The position numbers and the translations under genes were made by a program. 64,000 bases of DNA from Microbacterium sp. JZ31 (GTDB taxonomy: Bacteria > Actinomycetota > Actinomycetes > Actinomycetales > Microbacteriaceae): NCBI RefSeq assembly GCF_016805985.1, contig NZ_CP017661.1, positions 1,364,001-1,428,000 of the forward strand. The letters are read 5' to 3'. This document shows, piece after piece, positions 7,009 through 13,832 of this stretch (positions are counted from its first letter, which is position 1; each line of letters starts with the position of its first letter). The notes under the pieces were generated by a model. The model searched no databases and was not told the origin of the DNA. It saw nothing but the letters and a program-made list of their open reading frames with translations.

Positions 7009-7038
7009 GGCCCCGCCACCTCGAAGGGTGGCGGGGCC
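7009..7038 (-). terminator. Original glnA1 rho-independent terminator, displaced from its gene
   Basis: A perfect 12-bp stem (GGCCCCGCCACC with GGTGGCGGGGCC) closes a 6-nt loop and is followed on the minus strand by a T-rich run (TTCGTCGTCCTTT). It lies 15 bp beyond a displaced copy of the glnA1 3' end (7054-7080). It was therefore most likely the glnA1 terminator before the island inserted. Confidence 0.75.
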
Positions 7039-7053: not shown

Positions 7054-7080
7054 TCAGACGCCGAAGCACAGCTCGAACTC
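7054..7080 (-). repeat. attL: displaced glnA1 3' end (left attachment site)
   Basis: Read on the minus strand, this 27-nt segment encodes EFELCFGV and a TGA stop. That is the C-terminus of glutamine synthetase without the rest of the gene. It matches 12408-12434 at 23 of 27 positions, with 13 consecutive identical bases (7068-7080, ACAGCTCGAACTC). Together the two copies bracket a phage-like island, as expected for attL and attR of an element that integrated in the 3' end of glnA1 and rebuilt it with its own sequence. Confidence 0.75.
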
Positions 7081-7184
7081 CGCCACTGAAGATGGCGGAT
7101 GATGTGGTCGCAGGACTTCCGCGTAATCCCGCGGAACTAGGTGATGGAGCGTGATGTGAGATGACGGGCCGGAACGGGCTTTCT

Positions 7185-7202
7185 GCGGACTCGCTGCGGA
7201 CT
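7185..7202 (+). repeat. Left copy of an 18-bp integrase arm-type repeat
   Basis: GCGGACTCGCTGCGGACT holds two GCGGACT heptamers 11 bp apart (start to start). A copy with 17 of 18 bases identical and in the same orientation is at 12364-12381, beside the other attachment site. Paired short repeats flanking an attachment core are typical of tyrosine-recombinase arm-binding sites. Confidence 0.55.
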
Positions 7203-7213
7203 GAGGGCGCAGG

Positions 7214-7453
7214 ATGAGCGCTCACGTCACGTGGCTCGGACACGCTGCGGCCGCGAAGCGTGTTCGCCGGTCCGTGCAGACCATCCGGAGCTGGGGTCGC
7301 GCCGGTATGCCGATGGGATGGGCGATCATCGACGGGCCACGGGCTCGAGTGGTCCGCGAGGACGTGCTGCTCGCCTGGTACGGGCAGACCCTCGCGAACG
7401 ATTCGATTCACCAGCAGCGGATGCGTCAGCGCGCGAGGCTGTGCGCCGCATAG
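7214..7453 (+). CDS. Small helix-turn-helix (excisionase-like) protein in the island
   Basis: This 79-aa protein has a compact N-terminal helix-turn-helix in which LGHAAAAKRVRRSVQTIRSW reads as a MerR or excisionase type recognition unit. It is followed by a short wing with GRARVVREDVLLAWYG. Phage and integrative-element proteins of this shape bind DNA near attachment sites or act as small repressors. It begins 11 bp after the arm-type repeat and about 130 bp from attL, which suits a recombination directionality factor, although a repressor role is equally possible. An AGGG-like ribosome site lies upstream. It is the only island gene on the plus strand near attL. Confidence 0.6.
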   Translation: MSAHVTWLGHAAAAKRVRRSVQTIRSWGRAGMPMGWAIIDGPRARVVREDVLLAWYGQTLANDSIHQQRMRQRARLCAA

Positions 7454-7694
7454 CGCGGCCGGGGCCTTTCCCGCCTTCCCCTCCTTGCGGGGTGCGAATG
7501 CGCCGCATCCGGGCGCACAGGGCCGGAGGGAGGCTCTCGGCGTGGATGACCTCGAGGTGCAGCCGCGGTGCCCATCCTGGGGGTCGTAACGCGTCCCCCG
7601 CCCGGGGTAATGGGGCCCGGACTGCGGGCGTCTCGAACCGTACTTTGACGCAGAGCCGCCTCAGTTCGGCGGGCCGTCGCTCCCGGGACACTGA

Positions 7695-7975
7695 CTAGGT
7701 CGTGTGGCGGATGCCCCTGCGCTTCCGCCCGACCCGCACCCACTCGTGCGCGCCTGGGATCCCGAGCAGCGCGCTCCTGACTGGCTGCATGTACTCATCG
7801 TGCTCGTGGTACCCCGCCCACATACCGACCTCCCGGCGACGACCTTGTCGCGGCCACGAGACATCGCGAGCGACTCCTCGACGACCGGGCGCCGCTCAGT
7901 CGTGAACTGGTTGCGGGTGAGGATCGCGGCGAGCTTCACACCGAGAGCAGCGTCGGGCGGGAGCGGCTCGGTCAT
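7695..7975 (-). pseudogene. Small island gene of unknown function, apparently split by a frameshift
   Basis: The minus strand opens with MTEPLPPDAALGVKLAAI at 7975, preceded by TAATCT and a 6-nt gap, so the start looks genuine and leaderless. Around 7824-7832 the natural-looking sequence jumps frame. After GRDKVVAG it continues as VGMWAGYHEHDEYMQPVRSA and ends IRHTT with a stop at 7695. The first frame runs on as low-complexity Ser/Gly/Thr sequence to 7661. A two-base insertion near 7830 would explain this. Alternatively the second part is a separate 42-aa gene starting at 7823 behind GGGAGG. No family recognised. Confidence 0.5.
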
Positions 7976-8013
7976 GCGGGCAGATTACGCCGGCGCTCGG
8001 ACATTGCTCCTCC

Positions 8014-8181
8014 CTATGAGGCTCTGAGCTCTTCGATCTGGTCGACGAGGATGCGCAGCACACGCACTAGTTTGCGGGTCGCAGCGTCGGGCGCACCGTC
8101 CTCCGGCGTCGCCGCATCGACTTCGTTGATGAGCTGCTTCGCCTGATCGAGGTCGTCCGAGGAGAAAGCATCATGCGCCAT
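8014..8181 (-). CDS. 55-aa unknown island protein
   Basis: This short gene encodes MAHDAFSSDDLDQAKQLI and then an acidic hinge and a second helical stretch (ATRKLVRVLRILVDQIEEL). It probably folds as two amphipathic helices, so a helical bundle or dimer is likely. The start is supported by TAGCCT exactly 6 nt before the ATG, the leaderless pattern seen throughout this chromosome. It lies between the frameshifted gene to its left and the DnaA-box-like region to its right. I do not recognise a family. Similar small helical proteins are common in phage and integrative-element accessory regions. Confidence 0.55.
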   Translation of the reverse strand: MAHDAFSSDDLDQAKQLINEVDAATPEDGAPDAATRKLVRVLRILVDQIEELRAS

Positions 8182-8341
8182 CTCGGCAGGCTATCGACGG
8201 CGTGCCAACCTACGCGAGAACTTACTCACACCACCGTCGGAGCCCTTGCGGACCATCAAACCTTCAAGTCGTTGTTCAATCACACCACACTCACAAGCTG
8301 TGAGACGGCGCGATCCCAAGCGGGACAAGGGAACGCCGTAG

Positions 8342-8429
8342 GTGTCCACACGCTGTGGACGAAGTTCTCCACAGCAGTTGTCCCCACTTCAGCGGCGTGT
8401 CGCGCGCGCCTTCCACAGGGCTTTCCACA
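8342..8429. other. Cluster of DnaA-box-like nonamers (candidate replication origin or DnaA-binding site of the element)
   Basis: In 88 bp I count six near matches to the actinobacterial box TTNTCCACA: GTGTCCACA (8342), an inverted TGTGGAC (8354), TTCTCCACA (8365), TTGTCCCCA (8378), CCTTCCACA (8409) and CTTTCCACA (8421). The first two form an inverted pair. The surrounding 8182-8576 stretch has no convincing gene. No replication initiator gene is visible in the remnant. Confidence 0.45.
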
Positions 8430-8503
8430 GGCAGGTTTGCGGCGGTGACGGAGGGGTGCTGTTGTATGAGCGCAGGCGAAGAGCTCGCCTGACGAACATG
8501 AGA

Positions 8504-8550
8504 ATGCGACACGGCTCCCGGGCCGGCAAGCACAAGGAGCCGTGTCGCAT
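8504..8550 (+). repeat. 15-bp perfect inverted repeat upstream of the 105-aa gene
   Basis: Arms ATGCGACACGGCTCC (8504-8518) and GGAGCCGTGTCGCAT (8536-8550) match perfectly around a 17-nt loop. No T-run follows and no plus-strand gene lies before it, so it does not look like an ordinary terminator. It ends 26 bp before the next start codon, which suits a regulatory hairpin or a protein-binding site. Confidence 0.6.
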
Positions 8551-8576
8551 AGCAACACCGCGTCCAGGAGGAAGCA

Positions 8577-8894
8577 ATGAGCTCAGACGAGCGTAACGGC
8601 ACGCAGGAAACGATGGAGCTTTTTCTCGAGCTCTCCGCTCGAGATGCGCGCGTCGCATACGCCACGGCGCAGCGGAACGCGCGGCTCATGGCGGATCGTG
8701 GGTTCGATCGCCGACGCATCATCGAGATCCTCGACATCGACGACGTGACGCTGCAGCGGATGCTCGCCGTTGACGGTCGACTCATGGATCCCGGATGCGC
8801 GCAGAACAAACATCGCGGCTGCCTCGGGTGGATGCACGACGACGCGACCCGCTCGGACCATCGCTGCGCCTGTGAGTGTCACGACGGCCATTAA
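8577..8894 (+). CDS. 105-aa island protein with Cys/His-rich tail
   Basis: A strong ribosome site (AGGAGGAAGCA) sits directly before the ATG, so this gene is probably translated. Residues 1-70 are helical, with an ARDARVAYATAQRNARLMA helix and a DRRRIIEILDIDDVTLQRML segment that could be a winged or simple helix-turn-helix unit. The last 35 residues contain four cysteines and four histidines (CAQNKHRGC, then CACECHDGH), a spacing that could bind zinc. No named family recognised. Phage or integrative-element origin is likely from its position between DnaA-box-like sites and prophage remnants. DNA binding is an inference from the helix and the Cys/His tail. Confidence 0.65.
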   Translation: MSSDERNGTQETMELFLELSARDARVAYATAQRNARLMADRGFDRRRIIEILDIDDVTLQRMLAVDGRLMDPGCAQNKHRGCLGWMHDDATRSDHRCACECHDGH

Positions 8895-9036
8895 GGTGCT
8901 TTTCCGGTCCGTCGCCGTCGACGCCTACCAGGGCTAGCCCTATGGATGCGCGGTACGATCGACGCTGCGCCGGGCGTTCCTCGCTGAGAAGTGGGGGGCA
9001 ACGCCCGGCGTCTTCGTCTTTCGCGTCGAGCTGTGG
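8895..9036. other. Short island spacer without a supported gene
   Basis: A frame open from 8938 to 9366 reads plausibly (RRAFLAEKWGATPGVFVF) but has no start codon before an internal ATG at 9064. It also overlaps a better minus-strand candidate, so I do not call it. Confidence 0.4.
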
Positions 9037-9180
9037 CTACGCGGCTTCGGCGATTTCGTCCGGATGCTCCGGGCACCCAGAAGGGTCGCCGAAACTCCGA
9101 TCGGGGACGTAGAAGTGCTCGCCAACCTCGCACCAGGCGAGTCGGGACGGACGGCGGTGGTAGCGGTTACGCTGATTCAT
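9037..9180 (-). CDS. 47-aa unknown island protein
   Basis: The minus strand encodes MNQRNRYHRRPSRLAWCEVG and continues with EHFYVPDRSFGDPSGCPEHP before a stop at 9037. A TTGGAG ribosome site is about 5 nt before the ATG, and the start overlaps the stop of a 32-codon frame (9177-9275) as ATGA. The sequence mixes aromatic, acidic and two cysteine residues and does not read like random high-GC shadow. The Cys and His spacing could suit a small metal-binding fold. No family recognised; it is probably a phage accessory protein. Confidence 0.45.
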   Translation of the reverse strand: MNQRNRYHRRPSRLAWCEVGEHFYVPDRSFGDPSGCPEHPDEIAEAA

Positions 9181-9495
9181 GGGGCTCCAAGCGAATCGGG
9201 GAGTTTCGGAGCGGGATCGCTCCGAGGTCGCCGGAGTCTAGGCCCTTCAGGTAGGCACTTCGGGGACTTGCCCATCGAAACTGCCGAGGGTCGCCTCAGG
9301 TGCAGGACCAGAGCCCACACGAGCACCACCACGAGGCACCCGGCACCCCCTCAGTGCAGTCTTTGAACCCGCTTTCGGTGTCCGCCGCCCCCCGGCGGTC
9401 CGGAGGCTGGGGACGTTGGGTGCATCCCCCGTCCTTGGATTTCCCCGGTTGAGTCGAGGTGCAAGAGTTGCCTGCAGATCCGCTGGATTGTCTGC
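9181..9495. other. Island spacer, 315 bp
   Basis: It holds only a possible 32-codon minus-strand frame (9177-9275) that would be translationally coupled to the 47-aa gene, and a short GGAGC/GCTCC hairpin near 9208. Nothing else is supported. Confidence 0.4.
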
Positions 9496-10134
9496 TCAAT
9501 CGGGCTCGTGTGTGACTACGACCGTGGGCGTCGGCTGAGGCTGCATTGTGGCGACTGCGGACAGCCCGGCGATGACGAGCGAGAGGACAGCCACCGCGAG
9601 GGAAGCCCATGTCATCCTCCGAGTGAAGGTCTGTGCACGCTCCGCGTTGGCCTGCTGGTCGTGGGACATCTGCAGGTTGGCGTTCGTCAGGCGCACCAGG
9701 TCTGCGGTTACCGTGTGCACGTCGGTAAGAACGTCGACCATGCGCTCGGTGGCCTCCGCGGTGCGGTGCATCGGAGTATCGGACATGTCGGGCAGTTCGT
9801 ACGGTTGGGGCAGCGAAGCGACAACTTCGGGCGACAGCTTCGGCATGCGTCGGAGAAGCGAGTCAGCTGCGGTGCTGGGCGGCAGCCTCAGCTGCTTGAG
9901 ACGCTCCCGGGCTTCCTCGATGCCGCTGAAGTCCATCGCCTTCAGCAATGAGGCGCTGACCTTCGTCGGGTTGATGCCGAGGCGCCTGTACGCTTCGCGG
10001 ACGGTCTCCCGATCGTGCTCCGACTCGATGCGCTCCAGCTGCTCGAAGTCGATGGGCGGGTCCTGGTCTCCCGTGGCTGCGTACTGGTCGAAATTGACGA
10101 CAGACGGCTCAGGCGTGGGATCTTCCTTCGTCAC
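9496..10134 (-). CDS. Unknown C-terminally membrane-anchored island protein
   Basis: A 212-aa protein starting at a GTG (MTKEDPTPEPSVVNFDQY). Residues 25-110 are charged and helical. Residues 115-180 form a likely coiled coil (ATERMVDVLTDVHTVTADLV onward). A single hydrophobic segment near residues 183-205 (WASLAVAVLSLVIAGLSAVA) is followed by a short tail, QPQPTPTVVVTHEPD. This gives a tail-anchored membrane protein with the bulk in the cytoplasm, or a signal-less type II arrangement. I do not recognise a family. Its position among prophage remnants suggests element origin, and the intact frame suggests it may still be expressed. Confidence 0.65.
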   Translation of the reverse strand: MTKEDPTPEPSVVNFDQYAATGDQDPPIDFEQLERIESEHDRETVREAYRRLGINPTKVSASLLKAMDFSGIEEARERLKQLRLPPSTAADSLLRRMPKLSPEVVASLPQPYELPDMSDTPMHRTAEATERMVDVLTDVHTVTADLVRLTNANLQMSHDQQANAERAQTFTRRMTWASLAVAVLSLVIAGLSAVATMQPQPTPTVVVTHEPD

Positions 10135-10282
10135 GAATGCATGGTGCCACGAAGAACAGGCAGCGCGGAGGTCAGGGCCGGTGTGCTGCCCGGCCGCCGG
10201 CGCTGCGATTTCAGCGGGCGTGCTCGGTCCGGTGTCGAACGGCGAAGCCTGCTGTCGCTAGCTGAGGGACGGGTTAATCCGT

Positions 10283-10598
10283 TCAAGGTTGGGTGGTGAT
10301 GGCTTCGGCGACACGAAGCTCGTGCAAGAGCTTCGTGTAGCGGCGCATGATGTCGAGTACCTCACCCCGGCGTTGTGTCTGCGAGGAAGCAGTAGTCCTG
10401 CACGAGCGACAGCGCGCGGTGGACGATCATCCTCATGTACCCGGGTGACTGCGTACGGTTGCGGATGCTGAACATCCGCACGACCGCGTCGAAGCGTCGG
10501 CCCGGGTCCGGCGTGAGCACTCTCCGGGCGGGGTCGTGCGCGTCGGTCTCCGCGACGTCGGAGTCGAGGATGAAGAGCTCGTCACCGAACTGGAACAT
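10283..10598 (-). pseudogene. Unknown small island gene, probably frameshifted near its end
   Basis: The frame from 10598 encodes MFQFGDELFILDSDVAETDA and continues to a stop at 10362 (78 aa). The next frame carries a natural-looking continuation, GEVLDIMRRYTKLLHELRVA, ending at 10283. A single base change near 10370 would join them into about 103 residues. Either the gene is frameshifted or a 21-aa peptide is encoded separately. No family recognised. A 32-codon frame (10630-10728, VTFHSSGNFRSDLNRLDHEL) lies just upstream and may be a further fragment of the same transcript. Confidence 0.45.
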
Positions 10599-10748
10599 CC
10601 CTCGCGTCTCCGGTTGACGTGGCTGGTCATCAATTGCGCCCTCCTCTGCCTTCGCGCGCGTAGTGCCTCAGCTCGTGGTCGAGCCGGTTGAGGTCGCTGC
10701 GGAAGTTGCCCGACGAGTGGAACGTCACGAGCCGACCAGCGGGCCTTG

Positions 10749-11345
10749 CTACGCGGGAGCGGCGGTGGCCGGCGCGGATGCGAACATCGAGGGCTGATGC
10801 CAGGCGCCGAGCCGGAAGCCGACCTCCTCGTGAATCGCGAGGTTGCGGTTCCGGTGCTTCGGGTCGAGGGTGATGTACGCCTCGTCAAACTCCTCCGCGA
10901 ACTTGTGGATCCCTCCCGACGTGTACGGGTAGATGCCCAACGCCCAGCCGCAGGCGGAGAACGCGAGGGGCTTGCCGCCGACATACAGGTTGACCGTCGC
11001 GTTGTTGTCGGACCCGCGCTCGAGGTTTCGCGGGATGCCGTCGGTCGTGATCCCGATGTCCAGCGTTGGCGCGTGGAGGTTGTTGAGGTACTCCTGGAAC
11101 GCCGCTGCACGGCGCAACGCCTCGTTTGTGTCGGCAATTGCCTTCCACTGTGTCTCGGTCGGGATCTTGAAGATCTCGTCGGCCAACGCGGTCGCTGCGT
11201 CCCCGTTGCCGGTGAGGTCGGTGATCCGGTCGATCAGCGACTGGCGTGAAGCTTCGAGCGTCTGGCGGTACGCCTCGGTGTTCCCGTCGAGGGCGTACTG
11301 CGCCTCCGCGGCCTCCTGTGCTTTGCCGGCGAGCTCCGCGAACAT
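10749..11345 (-). pseudogene. C-terminal remnant of a phage tail tape-measure protein
   Basis: The 198-aa frame begins inside a protein. Its first half (AELAGKAQEAAEAQYALDGN through TDLTGNGDAATALADEIFKI) reads like the helical repeat region of siphophage tape-measure proteins. After a stretch with ITTDGIPRN comes GGIHKFAEEFDEAYITLDPK, resembling the typical tape-measure C-terminus with its GG...E..EAYI motif. Intact tape-measure genes encode a thousand or more residues, so nearly all of it is missing. The 5' end stops abruptly at the junction with the integrase fragment (11343-11360), which lies head to head with it. This is the clearest evidence that the island descends from a temperate phage. 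Confidence 0.75.
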
Positions 11346-11348
11346 GGC

Positions 11349-11554
11349 GAGGTGACCTGGGGCACTACTTCGCGAGCCTGCTGATCTCGGCCGGCCTCGA
11401 CCTCAAGACCGTGCAGGCGAGGCTGCACGCCTCCGCGAAGACCACGCTCGACACCTACGGGTACATGTGGCCCGACCGTGACGAGTCCTCCCGCCAGGCA
11501 GTGGCGCAGGTGTTGCGTGCGACCAGCCCAGGCTCAGGCGTACGCGAAGCTTGA
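11349..11554 (+). pseudogene. C-terminal fragment of a tyrosine-recombinase integrase
   Basis: About 68 codons keep the end of the catalytic domain: HYFASLLISAGLDLKTVQAR, then LHASAKTTLDTYGYMWPDRD. The family pattern is H-x-L-R-H...(L/R)-x-H-A-S...T-x-x-x-Y. Here the conserved LRH arginine reads as glycine, the residue before the HAS histidine is lost, and the nucleophile tyrosine in TLDTYG remains. Everything upstream, including the first catalytic arginine and the DNA-binding domain, is absent, so the protein cannot be active. It points toward attR. Its loss would strand the element in the chromosome. Confidence 0.85.
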
Positions 11555-11923
11555 CGCTTCCGAATTGACCTCCACGTCGACTCCCTTTACGGCAAAGTGG
11601 GACTTGCGACGGCCTGTGTACTTGATCTTGAACATGCCCATCGACATGTCGGAGTTCAAGTGATCCGTGGATTCCTCGGAAGCATCGACCGCGGTCATTG
11701 CCTTCGTGATGGTGAAGATTGAGAACCGCTTCACCTCTGCCAGGGCTACGTTGGCGCTGCCTCCGACGGCGTCGACGCGCACCAGCACGTCACTGAGGTA
11801 CTCGGCGGGGGTCGCAACTACCAACGGCTGAGACCCGTCAGGCGCAACATAAGGCAGACCGACCTCTTGCGGGCCGAACGCGATAGCGGCGACGACACGA
11901 CGGGTCGCTTCGTGACGATTCAT
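11534..11923 (-). CDS. 129-aa unknown protein, second gene of a two-gene unit
   Basis: The start codon overlaps the stop of the upstream gene (ATGA at 11920-11923), so the two are translationally coupled. The protein (MNRHEATRRVVAAIAFGPQE onward) looks alpha/beta with a central ATPAEYLSDVLVRVDAVGGS segment and a C-terminal half rich in beta-prone residues (MGMFKIKYTGRRKSHFAVKG). No motif or membrane segment stands out and I do not recognise a family. The tail overlaps the integrase remnant by 21 bp. The intact frame beside broken phage genes suggests it is kept by selection. Toxin-antitoxin or anti-phage cargo is possible but unproven. Confidence 0.6.
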   Translation of the reverse strand: MNRHEATRRVVAAIAFGPQEVGLPYVAPDGSQPLVVATPAEYLSDVLVRVDAVGGSANVALAEVKRFSIFTITKAMTAVDASEESTDHLNSDMSMGMFKIKYTGRRKSHFAVKGVDVEVNSEASSFAYA

Positions 11924-12294
11924 TTCAATGGGTCCTGTCCGGTCAGGATGAGGTAGACCGAGTACACCTCATCATAGGAGTCCGCGAAGGATGATTGAAC
12001 ATCGGCCTGAGATTGGATCGGCCGGATCTCGTCCCAGCTCGTGTGATCACCGTCTCTGTGCCGATGCACGCATCCGTGGTGCTTCGTGTCGATGGAGTGA
12101 ATCTCCACCCACGCTTCGTCCACCGACTCGCGAAAAGACAACACCACGGCGTACTCAACGAGTTGGCCATTCCATGTAACACGCCGGACGTTGAGCAGGT
12201 ACTGCTCCTCTAGCGCGACGGGCATTCGCTGCTCCGCGCACTCATCCCGCGGGGGAGGCGTCCACATGGCGTCCGAGGCGCTGCTCTGCGTCAC
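11920..12294 (-). CDS. 124-aa unknown protein, first gene of a two-gene unit (DUF6516/DUF7718-like by eye)
   Basis: I chose the GTG at 12294 because TAGGAT lies 7 nt upstream (leaderless pattern); an ATG at 12267 is the alternative. The core is beta-rich: EEQYLLNVRRVTWNGQLVEY, then YAVVLSFRE, then HSIDTKHHGCVHRHRDG. The latter has an Asp and six histidines over about 15 residues. A closing helix contains SYDEVYSVYLIL. The general shape, a small beta-sheet with a His-rich D..HG..H.H strand, resembles small DUF6516/TumE or DUF7718 type proteins, some of which are toxins. I cannot confirm this without a profile search. It is coupled to the 11534-11923 gene and lies against attR. Confidence 0.6.
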   Translation of the reverse strand: MTQSSASDAMWTPPPRDECAEQRMPVALEEQYLLNVRRVTWNGQLVEYAVVLSFRESVDEAWVEIHSIDTKHHGCVHRHRDGDHTSWDEIRPIQSQADVQSSFADSYDEVYSVYLILTGQDPLK

Positions 12295-12319
12295 AGTCCC
12301 GATCCTAAGGTGATGAGAA

Positions 12320-12352
12320 GAGCCCGCCAGGGCCGACCTGACGGGCTCTCTC
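12320..12352. terminator. GC-rich hairpin between the island and glnA1
   Basis: AGAGCCCGCCAGG and CCTGACGGGCTCT pair over 12 of 13 positions around a GCCGA loop. It lies 56 bp beyond the present glnA1 stop and probably serves as the element-supplied glnA1 terminator on the minus strand. T-richness is weak. Confidence 0.5.
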
Positions 12353-12363
12353 CAAGAAATCTC

Positions 12364-12381
12364 GCGGACTCCCTGCGGACT
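12364..12381 (+). repeat. Right copy of the 18-bp integrase arm-type repeat
   Basis: GCGGACTCCCTGCGGACT matches 7185-7202 in 17 of 18 bases, same orientation, 41 bp from the attR core. See the left copy for interpretation. Confidence 0.55.
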
Positions 12382-12407
12382 ATGTCCCGGAACTCCGCGG
12401 AATCTCC

Positions 12408-12434
12408 TTACACTCCGAAGTACAGCTCGAACTC
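12408..12434 (-). repeat. attR: present glnA1 3' end
   Basis: The last nine codons of glnA1 (EFELYFGV and TAA) are duplicated imperfectly at 7054-7080. The identical 13-bp core ACAGCTCGAACTC is at 12422-12434. The present end differs from the displaced one at four bases, including the stop codon, so the element likely brought its own 3' end. Confidence 0.75.
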
Positions 12435-13832
12435 GAACGGGTGCGGGCGCTGGGCCATCGGACGGATCTCGTTCTCGAGCTTGTAGTCGATCCACGTGTC
12501 GATCAGCTCGTCGGTGAACACGCCGCCGGCGGTGAGGAACGCGCGGTCCTTGTCGAGCGCCTCGAGCGAGTCCTGCAGCGAGTTCGGCACCTGCGGGATC
12601 TCCTTGGCCTCCTCGGGCGGAAGCTCGTAGAGGTCCTTGTCGACGGGCTCGTGCGGCTCGATGCGGTTCTTGATGCCGTCGAGGCCGGCCATCAGCTGCG
12701 CCGCGAAGGCGAGGTACGGGTTGCCGGAGGCGTCGGGCGCGCGGAACTCGATGCGCTTGGCCTTCGGGTTCGAGCCCGTGATCGGGATGCGGATCGCCGC
12801 CGAGCGGTTGCCCGCCGAGTAGACGAGGTTGACCGGCGCCTCGAAGCCCTTCACCAGGCGGTGGTAGCTGTTCAGCGTGGGGTTTGTGAAGGCGAGCACG
12901 GCGGGAGCGTGCTTCAGGATGCCGCCGATGTACCAGCGCGCGATGTCGGAGAGCTGGCCGTAGCCCTTCTCGTCGTAGAAGAGCGGCTTGCCGTCGTTCC
13001 ACAGCGACTGGTGGGTGTGCATGCCCGAGCCGTTGTCGCCGAAGAGCGGCTTCGGCATGAAGGTCGCGACCTTGCCCCACTGCTCGGCGACGTTCTTCAC
13101 GATGTACTTGAACTTCAGGATGTCGTCCGCCGCGTGCACCATGGTGTCGAAGCGGTAGTTGATCTCCTGCTGGCCGCCCGTGCCCACCTCGTGGTGCGCG
13201 CGCTCGAGCTTCAGGCCGGCCTCGATGAGGTGGAGGCTGATGTCGTCGCGCAGGTCGGCCGTCTTGTCGACGGGCGAGACCGGGAAGTAGCCGCCCTTGT
13301 ACGGGGTCTTGTTGGCGAGGTTGCCGCCCTCCTCGGCGCGGCCGGAGTTCCACGCGCCCTCCTCGGAGTCGACCGAGTAGAAGCTCGCGTTCTGCTTCAC
13401 CTCGTAGCGCACGTCGTCGAAGATGTAGAACTCCGCCTCGGGCGCGAAGAACGCGGTGTCGGCGATGCCGGTGGAGGCGAGGTACTTCTCGGCCTTCTTG
13501 GCGACCTGACGCGGGTCCTTCGAGTAGATCTCGCCGTTGCGCGGGTTGTAGATGTCGAAGACCATGACCAGCGTCTTGGCCTCGCGGAAGGGGTCGAGGT
13601 AGGCCGTGGTCACGTCGGGGATGAGCTGCATGTCCGACTCATGGATGTTCGCGAAGCCCCGGATCGAGGAGCCGTCGAACAGCTGCCCCACCGTGAAGAA
13701 CTCCTCGTCGACAGTCGACGCCGGGATGTTGAAGTGCTGCTGGACACCGGGGAGGTCGGTGAAACGGATGTCGAGGAACTTGACATCGTTGTCCTTGATG
13801 AACGCCAGCACCTCGGATGAATCGTTGAACAT
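12408..13832 (-). CDS. glnA: Type I glutamine synthetase GlnA1
   Basis: The main ATP-dependent glutamine synthetase, 474 aa, forming a cytoplasmic dodecamer. Landmarks run in order: FDGSSIRGF near residue 52, the NYRFDTM region, [20 protein letters not shown] near residue 260, and NRSAAIRIP. The adenylylation motif DLYELPPEE near residue 400 keeps the tyrosine that GlnE (1307-4300) would modify. The ATG at 13832 has GGAGCC upstream. A GlnR-type box lies about 95 bp before the start, so transcription is probably nitrogen-controlled. The last nine codons form attR of the neighbouring island: the original C-terminus was replaced by FELYFGV, differing from the displaced FELCFGV, and the original terminator now sits 5.4 kb away. 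Activity should be unaffected because the swapped residues are conservative. Confidence 0.98.

What the first reader, a model, noticed from the sequence alone, without database searches (positions are those of the whole stretch)
7054..12434. A decayed phage-like element is integrated in the 3' end of glnA1 and rebuilt its C-terminus
The last nine codons of glnA1 occur twice, at 12408-12434 (in the gene) and at 7054-7080 (orphaned). The match is 23 of 27 bases and includes a 13-bp perfect core. The orphan copy sits 15 bp from a strong terminator with a T-run on the glnA1 strand, so it is the original gene end. Between the copies are an integrase tail, a tape-measure tail and small unknown genes. 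Most actinobacterial elements use tRNA genes; use of a glutamine synthetase gene as target is unusual to my knowledge, and I cannot check the literature.
Basis: partly seen in the sequence, partly recalled or inferred. Interest (0 to 1): 0.82.

Follow-up and report, generated by a model that had tools for sequence, protein, structure and literature searches.

The report
Dead prophage at glutamine synthetase gene end
The window holds the wreck of a virus that once inserted itself into the very end of a bacterium's glutamine synthetase gene and repaired the gene as it did so, and the same landing site turns out to be used by a family of viruses and small virus-like elements in many actinobacteria.

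Summary
The 27-bp end of glnA (12408-12434) recurs once in the genome, at 7054-7080 (23/27, 13-bp perfect core). An unreported second repeat, AGTCCGCNNNNAGTCCGC, occurs exactly twice in the 3.19-Mb genome, just inside each end, at the spacings of related elements: probable integrase arm sites. The region is a decayed prophage: the integrase is reduced to a C-terminal fragment without its HxxR motif, joined by deletion to a tape-measure C-terminus. In 18 of 21 other same-genus glnA ends examined the gene is uninterrupted (TGA, then a hairpin 6-21 bp on). The orphan copy looks like that; the in-gene copy does not. The element supplied the last codons, the stop and apparently a terminator.

The target is not a one-off. 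Of the 80 best related integrases from a genome collection, 63 end within 2.5 kb of a glnA 3' end, in many actinobacterial families. Elements run from 1.7-kb remnants through many of 8-10 kb to a 37-kb prophage. Two viral contigs carry the predicted unintegrated attP. Ten literature searches listed no paper on glnA as an attB. New variant of a known kind.

The parts
12408..13832 (-). glnA (474 aa), whose last codons, stop and downstream hairpin are element-derived
   Evidence: orthologues up to 93% identical in same-genus genomes
12408..12434 (-). in-gene attachment copy (attL): GAGTTCGAGCTGTACTTCGGAGTGTAA; 13-bp perfect core 12422-12434
7054..7080 (-). orphan attachment copy (attR): GAGTTCGAGCTGTGCTTCGGCGTCTGA, the displaced original gene end
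12364..12381 (-). arm-type repeat on the glnA side, 26 bp after the glnA stop
7185..7202 (-). arm-type repeat on the distal side, 122 bp before the orphan copy
12315..12352 (-). strong hairpin supplied by the element, probable replacement glnA terminator
   Evidence: stretch folds at -32.4 kcal/mol, z -3.6; such a hairpin in 18 of 18 occupied loci examined
7009..7038 (-). probable original glnA terminator hairpin, 15 bp beyond the orphan copy
11354..11554 (+). tyrosine integrase pseudogene: C-terminal fragment; HxxR motif lost (His position at the break, Arg to Gly), one codon missing, Tyr kept (motif roles recalled)
10749..11345 (-). C-terminal fragment of a tail tape-measure gene; its broken 5' end meets that of the integrase fragment at about 11346-11354
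11920..12294 (-). small possible cargo gene, first of a coupled pair (ATGA overlap)
   Evidence: homologues in 3 of 197 other same-genus genomes
11534..11923 (-). small possible cargo gene, second of the pair
7214..7453 (+). 79-aa HTH-type protein near the distal end
   Evidence: weak: PHROG excisionase/regulator 0.0013; terminase small subunit 0.0088
9496..10134 (-). 212-aa ORF, function not assigned, possible cargo
8577..8894 (+). 105-aa ORF, function not assigned

Best explanation
A temperate phage of a tyrosine-integrase group that mostly targets the 3' end of glnA recombined its attP with the last codons of glnA in an ancestor of this bacterium (a Microbacterium by GlnA similarity). Strand exchange within the 13-bp core (GAGTTCGAGCTGT) left the host's original end, TGA and terminator at the far side (attR, 7054-7080 plus 7009-7038). 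It gave glnA a new end from the phage: last codons for the same residues, a TAA, an arm-site pair and a hairpin that can end the glnA transcript. The prophage then decayed. A large deletion brought the integrase C-terminus next to the tape-measure C-terminus, removing what lay between. The residue should be immobile, while glnA is intact. Shown here: both att copies, both arm pairs, the family layout, relatives without the island, attP in viral contigs, the truncated integrase. Inferred: that the repeat is bound by the integrase arm domain, that the hairpin terminates transcription, that one deletion made the joint, and that the ancestor was a phage of roughly 37 kb.
For: The att copy and the arm pair each occur exactly twice in the genome, at the two ends. 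Arm-to-core spacings match relatives: the distal pair begins 120-123 bp before the orphan copy in all 24 of 37 rows that have one; the proximal pair begins 26, 36-37 or 47-48 bp after the stop in the 30 of 37 rows that have one (nine of the twelve G rows had been picked by a pattern that asks for the proximal pair, the 25 L rows had not). 18 of 21 other same-genus genomes have an uninterrupted glnA end with TGA and a hairpin at +6 to +21, like the orphan copy. The integrase tail is 82% identical to intact integrases that sit convergent to and beside glnA. 16 of 398 family genomes, in 12 of 85 genera, match the occupied-end pattern; reversed-pattern control 0. Tape-measure fragment, and a 37-kb relative with terminase, major head protein and tape measure. 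attP with ...ELYYGV* between two arm pairs in two viral contigs.
Against: No relative with the same chromosomal flank and an empty site was found. Of nine other island ORFs compared with 18 relatives' regions, none had a tblastn match at E 0.01, so the link to phage rests on the tape measure and the integrase. The two coupled ORFs between the integrase tail and glnA are not standard for the family, so later insertion or two successive elements is possible. Seven of 37 rows lack the proximal and 13 the distal arm pair under the pattern used. Neither hairpin is called by the T-run-based scan.
Confidence: 0.95

Rival explanations
1. Two or more elements entered the glnA site in succession, and the present island is the fused residue of both; the coupled ORF pair at 11534-12294 and its hairpin came with a different element than the integrase/tape-measure residue.
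For: The integrase tail lies about 0.85 kb from glnA, whereas 57 of 80 genome integrases lie within 500 bp. Other members also have extra DNA between integrase and glnA (6 of 80 at 501-2500 bp).
Against: Only one arm pair at each end, and no third exact att copy or arm pair in the genome.
Confidence: 0.25
2. The island is a remnant of a small (about 9-10 kb) satellite-like element rather than of a full phage.
For: 20 of 34 distinct two-ended elements measure 8.0-10.4 kb; at least three of them carry a tape-measure gene (L088, L096, L130).
Against: The size count is biased because the L loci were cut 10 kb upstream of the integrase. The tape fragment resembles that of a complete phage, and too little is left to decide.
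Confidence: 0.3
3. The repeat is a coincidence or a gene-end duplication without any mobile element.
For: Repeats of similar length at 70-80% identity occur between unrelated places in this GC-rich region.
Against: Only this pair matches the gene end in register, with arm repeats, an integrase fragment and many homologous elements at the same codon position.
Confidence: 0.01

Closest known systems
dusA-associated integrases and islands (Farrugia et al. 2015, PMC4482086; 12 passages seen)
   Same: One tyrosine-integrase family for one conserved protein gene in many hosts; mixed cargo including prophages; imperfect direct repeats; the element replaces the end of the gene with its own sequence.
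   Different: dusA islands replace the 5' end of dusA in Proteobacteria; here it is the 3' end of glnA in actinobacteria, with codons, stop and apparently a terminator supplied. The two integrase families were not compared by sequence.
HE-PICI integrase clade (Tommasini et al. 2023, PMC10111431; 7 passages seen)
   Same: Integrase clades unified by attB; a repeat motif with a co-oriented second copy 132 +/- 2 bp from the att centre, perhaps bound by integrase arm domains.
   Different: HE-PICIs interrupt prophage late genes and carry no replacement end; neither glnA nor glutamine occurs in the held main text.
Actinobacterial prophages and mycobacterial PICIs (PMC10023795: abstract, outline, 4 passages; PMC10654092: 11 passages)
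   Same: Tyrosine-integrase prophages, remnants, and small elements suspected to be satellites.
   Different: Sites described: near tRNA genes for at least 15% of loci (PMC10023795); 16 of 23 tyrosine-integrase attB sites of M. abscessus overlap tRNA or tmRNA genes (PMC10654092). The word glutamine occurs in neither held main text.
Microbacterium phage Footloose (MZ150789)
   Same: Tape-measure C-terminus 40% identical to the window fragment; annotated tyrosine integrase.
   Different: Its integrase is 27% identical over 247 residues to the group's, and bases 1-32668 of 39738 hold no glnA core with fewer than 4 mismatches in 21.

Membership tests
Integrated temperate phage / prophage remnant | flanking att repeats overlapping a host gene end | tested here: met
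Integrated temperate phage / prophage remnant | site-specific integrase at one end | tested here: met
   as a C-terminal fragment only, HxxR lost:
Integrated temperate phage / prophage remnant | phage structural gene | tested here: met
   tape-measure fragment:
Integrated temperate phage / prophage remnant | packaging, head, lysis and repressor genes (needed for an active prophage) | tested here: not met
   none among nine ORFs scanned by Pfam and PHROG apart from weak hits of the 79-aa HTH protein; hence remnant
glnA-targeting integrase element group (defined here) | insertion at the last codons of glnA | tested here: met
glnA-targeting integrase element group (defined here) | AGTCCGCNNNNAGTCCGC pair inside both ends at family spacing | tested here: met
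glnA-targeting integrase element group (defined here) | integrase of the group, convergent with glnA | tested here: met
   tail 82% identical to P0001 over 57 residues
dusA-associated integrase family | target in dusA | tested here: not met
   target is glnA
cf-PICI-like capsid-encoding satellite | terminase/portal/capsid present, tail genes absent | tested here: not met
   the window has a tail gene fragment and no head gene among the ORFs scanned; relatives L136 and L164 meet it among the 9 and 10 ORFs scanned
ICE / conjugative island | relaxase or conjugation genes | tested here: not met
   none in the Pfam scan of nine island ORFs

The most novel reading that the evidence does not exclude
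A single docking system found across actinobacteria: one tyrosine-integrase group reads the codons for the conserved glutamine synthetase C-terminus as its attB and carries a complete replacement 3' module (codons, stop, arm sites and a terminator; in many members the arm site is part of the terminator hairpin and of the integrase's own 3' coding end). It is shared by full-length phages and by tail-less, capsid-encoding elements of about 9.5 kb that would compete with their possible helpers for one chromosomal seat. The window is a fossil of this system.
Probability: 0.5. Interest if true: 0.68.

Novelty: new variant of a known kind. Interest (0 to 1): 0.52.

Why it matters
It points to a conserved, protein-coding integration site and matching integrases for actinobacteria. 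Practically, that suggests site-specific integration vectors for Microbacterium, Arthrobacter, Nocardioides and relatives that should leave glnA intact. It also lets glnA-borne prophages and small elements be found and bounded by a simple pattern, and makes it testable whether satellites and phages exclude each other at one seat and whether an important metabolic gene tolerates having its terminator replaced.

Tried and rejected
Chance repeat: rejected. Defence cargo: PADLOC found nothing among 8 island ORFs. Isolated phages with this integrase: 38 of 50,697 records match at E 1e-20, all below 60% identity, the 25 listed at 28-32%. Plasmids: no match at E 1e-40. A tRNA near integrases without an adjacent glnA: none in the 21 loci scanned, each holding at most 10 kb per side. 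Six such Nocardia loci instead face a gene whose protein ends ...HSYAGLN, and a seventh (L147) shows the same neighbouring gene; the name cytochrome c biogenesis-like is recalled, no profile was run. Footloose as a glnA phage: no core with fewer than 4 mismatches in the fetched stretch. A syntenic empty site through the flanking glycosyltransferase: not found. Literature: ten searches; none of the listed titles or abstract openings, and no passage read, reports glnA as an attachment site. The lists were capped and supplements could not be read, so a catalogue entry is not excluded. PMC8270828 was opened for its one mention of glutamine synthetase, which is a reference title.
Full report
OBSERVATION. 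The last 27 bases of glnA (12408-12434, minus strand) recur at 7054-7080 with four mismatches and a 13-bp perfect core. In the 3.19-Mb genome an end pattern allowing 3 mismatches has exact hits only at these two places, and three hits with 3 mismatches. Between them lie 5.3 kb at 64.9% GC against 68.4% for the 13.9-kb stretch around them, island included. Weaker repeats of 70-80% identity are common in this region, so length and percent identity alone would not convince; position in the gene end and what follows do.

A SECOND REPEAT. Just inside each end is GCGGACTCNCTGCGGACT (on the glnA strand AGTCCGCNNNNAGTCCGC): 12364-12381 and 7185-7202, exact. The AGTCCGC form has only these two hits in the whole genome, and none for the reversed-pattern control. 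In the circularised element the two would flank the core, as integrase arm sites do (general knowledge of lambda-type integrases).

EMPTY SITES. Of 38 genomes searched, 22 besides the window's own are of the same genus; one has only a partial glnA, and the other 21 were examined. In 18 of 21 the gene ends in TGA and a hairpin of -31 to -47 kcal/mol begins 6-21 bp later, with no arm repeat. Two (G007, G012) have the arm repeat and a second att copy 10.1 and 4.1 kb away. One (G021) has TAA and no intact arm repeat. The orphan copy in the window (TGA; stem 15 bp on, or 9 bp on if the outer pairs of the predicted fold are counted) fits the empty pattern. The in-gene copy (TAA, arm pair, hairpin at about +55) fits the occupied one. 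So glnA's present end most likely came from the element.

THE FAMILY. A pattern 'glnA end, 14-44 bases, arm pair' hits 16 of 398 family genomes, the window's included, in 12 of 85 genera, with no reversed-pattern hit. Intact relatives carry a tyrosine integrase of about 360 aa, convergent with glnA and directly beside it. Using six of them as query, the genome collection gave 92 relatives, of which the best 80 were returned. In 57 of 80 the integrase ends within 500 bp of a convergent glnA 3' end, in 6 at 501-2500 bp, in 2 farther; 13 show no such glnA although the contig goes on, and 2 run off the contig. Hosts of the near ones include Microbacteriaceae, Micrococcaceae, Cellulomonadaceae, Demequinaceae, Intrasporangiaceae, Geodermatophilaceae, Nocardioidaceae, Streptosporangiaceae, Micromonosporaceae, Nocardiaceae and Mycobacteriaceae. 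The window's GlnA is 93% identical to those of Microbacterium dauci and Microbacterium sp. oral taxon 186. A tree was built of 85 sequences: 76 of the 80 genome hits and 9 chosen viral ones. Seventy-nine form one group (100/100). The glnA label is strongly clustered (11 changes against a shuffled mean of 21.8, 0 of 500 shuffles as low) but is not a single clade: rows without an adjacent glnA lie inside, among them six Nocardia integrases (one clade, 100/99) that face another gene. So target shifts or intervening insertions occurred.

ATT ANATOMY. Second att copies were found in 34 distinct elements (37 rows, three elements being seen twice), with 0-5 mismatches in 27. The search window was 154 bp before the orphan copy and 129 bp after the stop. 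The distal arm pair begins 120-123 bp before the orphan copy in all 24 rows that have one, the window's at 122. The proximal pair begins 26, 36-37 or 47-48 bp after the stop in the 30 rows that have one, the window's at 26; the steps are near one helical turn. Thirteen rows lack a distal and seven a proximal pair under this pattern. Nine of the twelve G rows were picked by the proximal pair, so for them it is not independent; the 25 L rows were found through the integrase. Over all 37 rows the in-gene copy ends TAG 23, TGA 12, TAA 2, and the orphan copy TGA 23, TAG 9, TAA 5.

REPLACEMENT TERMINATOR. In 18 of 18 occupied loci examined, a hairpin within 140 nt after glnA is stronger than in any of 20 shuffles each (0 of 360). 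In 11 of the 31 loci printed the second arm repeat is itself one side of the best hairpin; where the integrase frame is known this lies in its 3' coding end. In the window the hairpin is 12315-12352. That it ends transcription is inference; a T-run-based scan does not call it.

FREE attP. A pattern for arm, core, arm found two viral contigs. Each has one core, coding ...MFELYYGV* or ...EEYELYYGV*, between two arm pairs 196 or 186 bp apart, beside an integrase of the group. This is the predicted unintegrated form. A third contig, L170, has arm pairs 175 bp apart but a different core, and 283-bp near-identical ends, suggesting a circle of about 9.7 kb.

STATE OF THE WINDOW ELEMENT. Only the C-terminus of the integrase remains (11354-11554); compared with intact relatives its HxxR motif is lost (Arg to Gly, His position at the break) and one codon is missing (motif roles recalled). 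Its broken 5' end meets the broken 5' end of the C-terminal part of a tape-measure gene (aligned to residues 718-878 of 931 of Footloose gp17, 40% identity) at about 11346-11354. In the 37-kb relative these two genes lie some 19 kb apart in the same relative orientation, so one large deletion is the simplest account (inference). No other integrase of the group was found in the genome; two hits at 28% identity are distant. The element should therefore be immobile. Two coupled ORFs (11920-12294 and 11534-11923, ATGA overlap) sit between the integrase tail and glnA; the pair is conserved in three of 197 other same-genus genomes, function unknown, probably cargo.

RANGE OF ELEMENTS. Two-ended sizes run from 1.7 to 37.2 kb; 20 of 34 are 8.0-10.4 kb, a count biased because the L loci were cut 10 kb upstream of the integrase. 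G163 (37.2 kb) has terminase, major head protein and tape measure. L136 (9.95 kb, Arsenicicoccus) and viral contig L164 (9.5 kb) have excisionase-like, primase/helicase-like, HNH, terminase, portal and major head genes, with no tail gene among the 9 and 10 ORFs scanned, which had been chosen for conservation; they resemble capsid-encoding satellites. Other elements of this size have a tape measure instead (L088, L096, L130) or tail-fibre-like genes (L066), so the size class is not uniform.

NOVELTY. The nearest precedent is the dusA integrase family (PMC4482086, passages seen): one integrase family, one protein gene, imperfect repeats, element-supplied gene end. What differs is the gene, the gene end, the host group and the supplied hairpin. 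Ten literature searches listed nothing on glnA as an attachment site (numbers under Tried and rejected); supplements could not be searched. I file it as a new variant of a known kind.

Noticed in passing
L136:1133-11312; L164:1-9534; L170 (about 9.7 kb, near-identical 283-bp ends): Elements of about 9.5-10 kb with an integrase of this group plus terminase, portal and major head genes but no tail gene among the ORFs scanned (profiles run for L136 and L164; L170 by blastp homology only): candidate capsid-encoding phage satellites of actinobacteria. About a quarter of the 37-kb relative's length.
   Followed up: partly
L140, L141, L151, L152, L153, L158 (and L147): Related integrases in Nocardia face the 3' end of a different protein gene (protein ending ...HSYAGLN in six; L147 shows the same neighbouring gene), suggesting a target switch within the group.
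   Followed up: partly
window 11534-12294: Coupled two-gene cassette with homologues in three other same-genus genomes; no Pfam, PHROG or PADLOC hit; possible toxin-antitoxin or other cargo pair.
   Followed up: partly
L056:118-1194 and relatives: The arm repeat and a terminator-like hairpin are written inside the coding 3' end of the integrase (...DESARAAV...ADSVRT...), so one stretch may serve as protein code, recombination site and terminator.
   Followed up: partly
G145, G100 (1.7 and 2.0 kb elements), G021: Very small remnants at glnA: G145 has no integrase hit and G100 only an integrase fragment, both with the glnA-side arm pair; G021 has a TAA end and no intact arm pair.
   Followed up: no
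L089, L113, L114, L124, L132, L159: Extra DNA of 0.6-2 kb between integrase and the glnA end, as in the window; may be a cargo slot or a second insertion.
   Followed up: no
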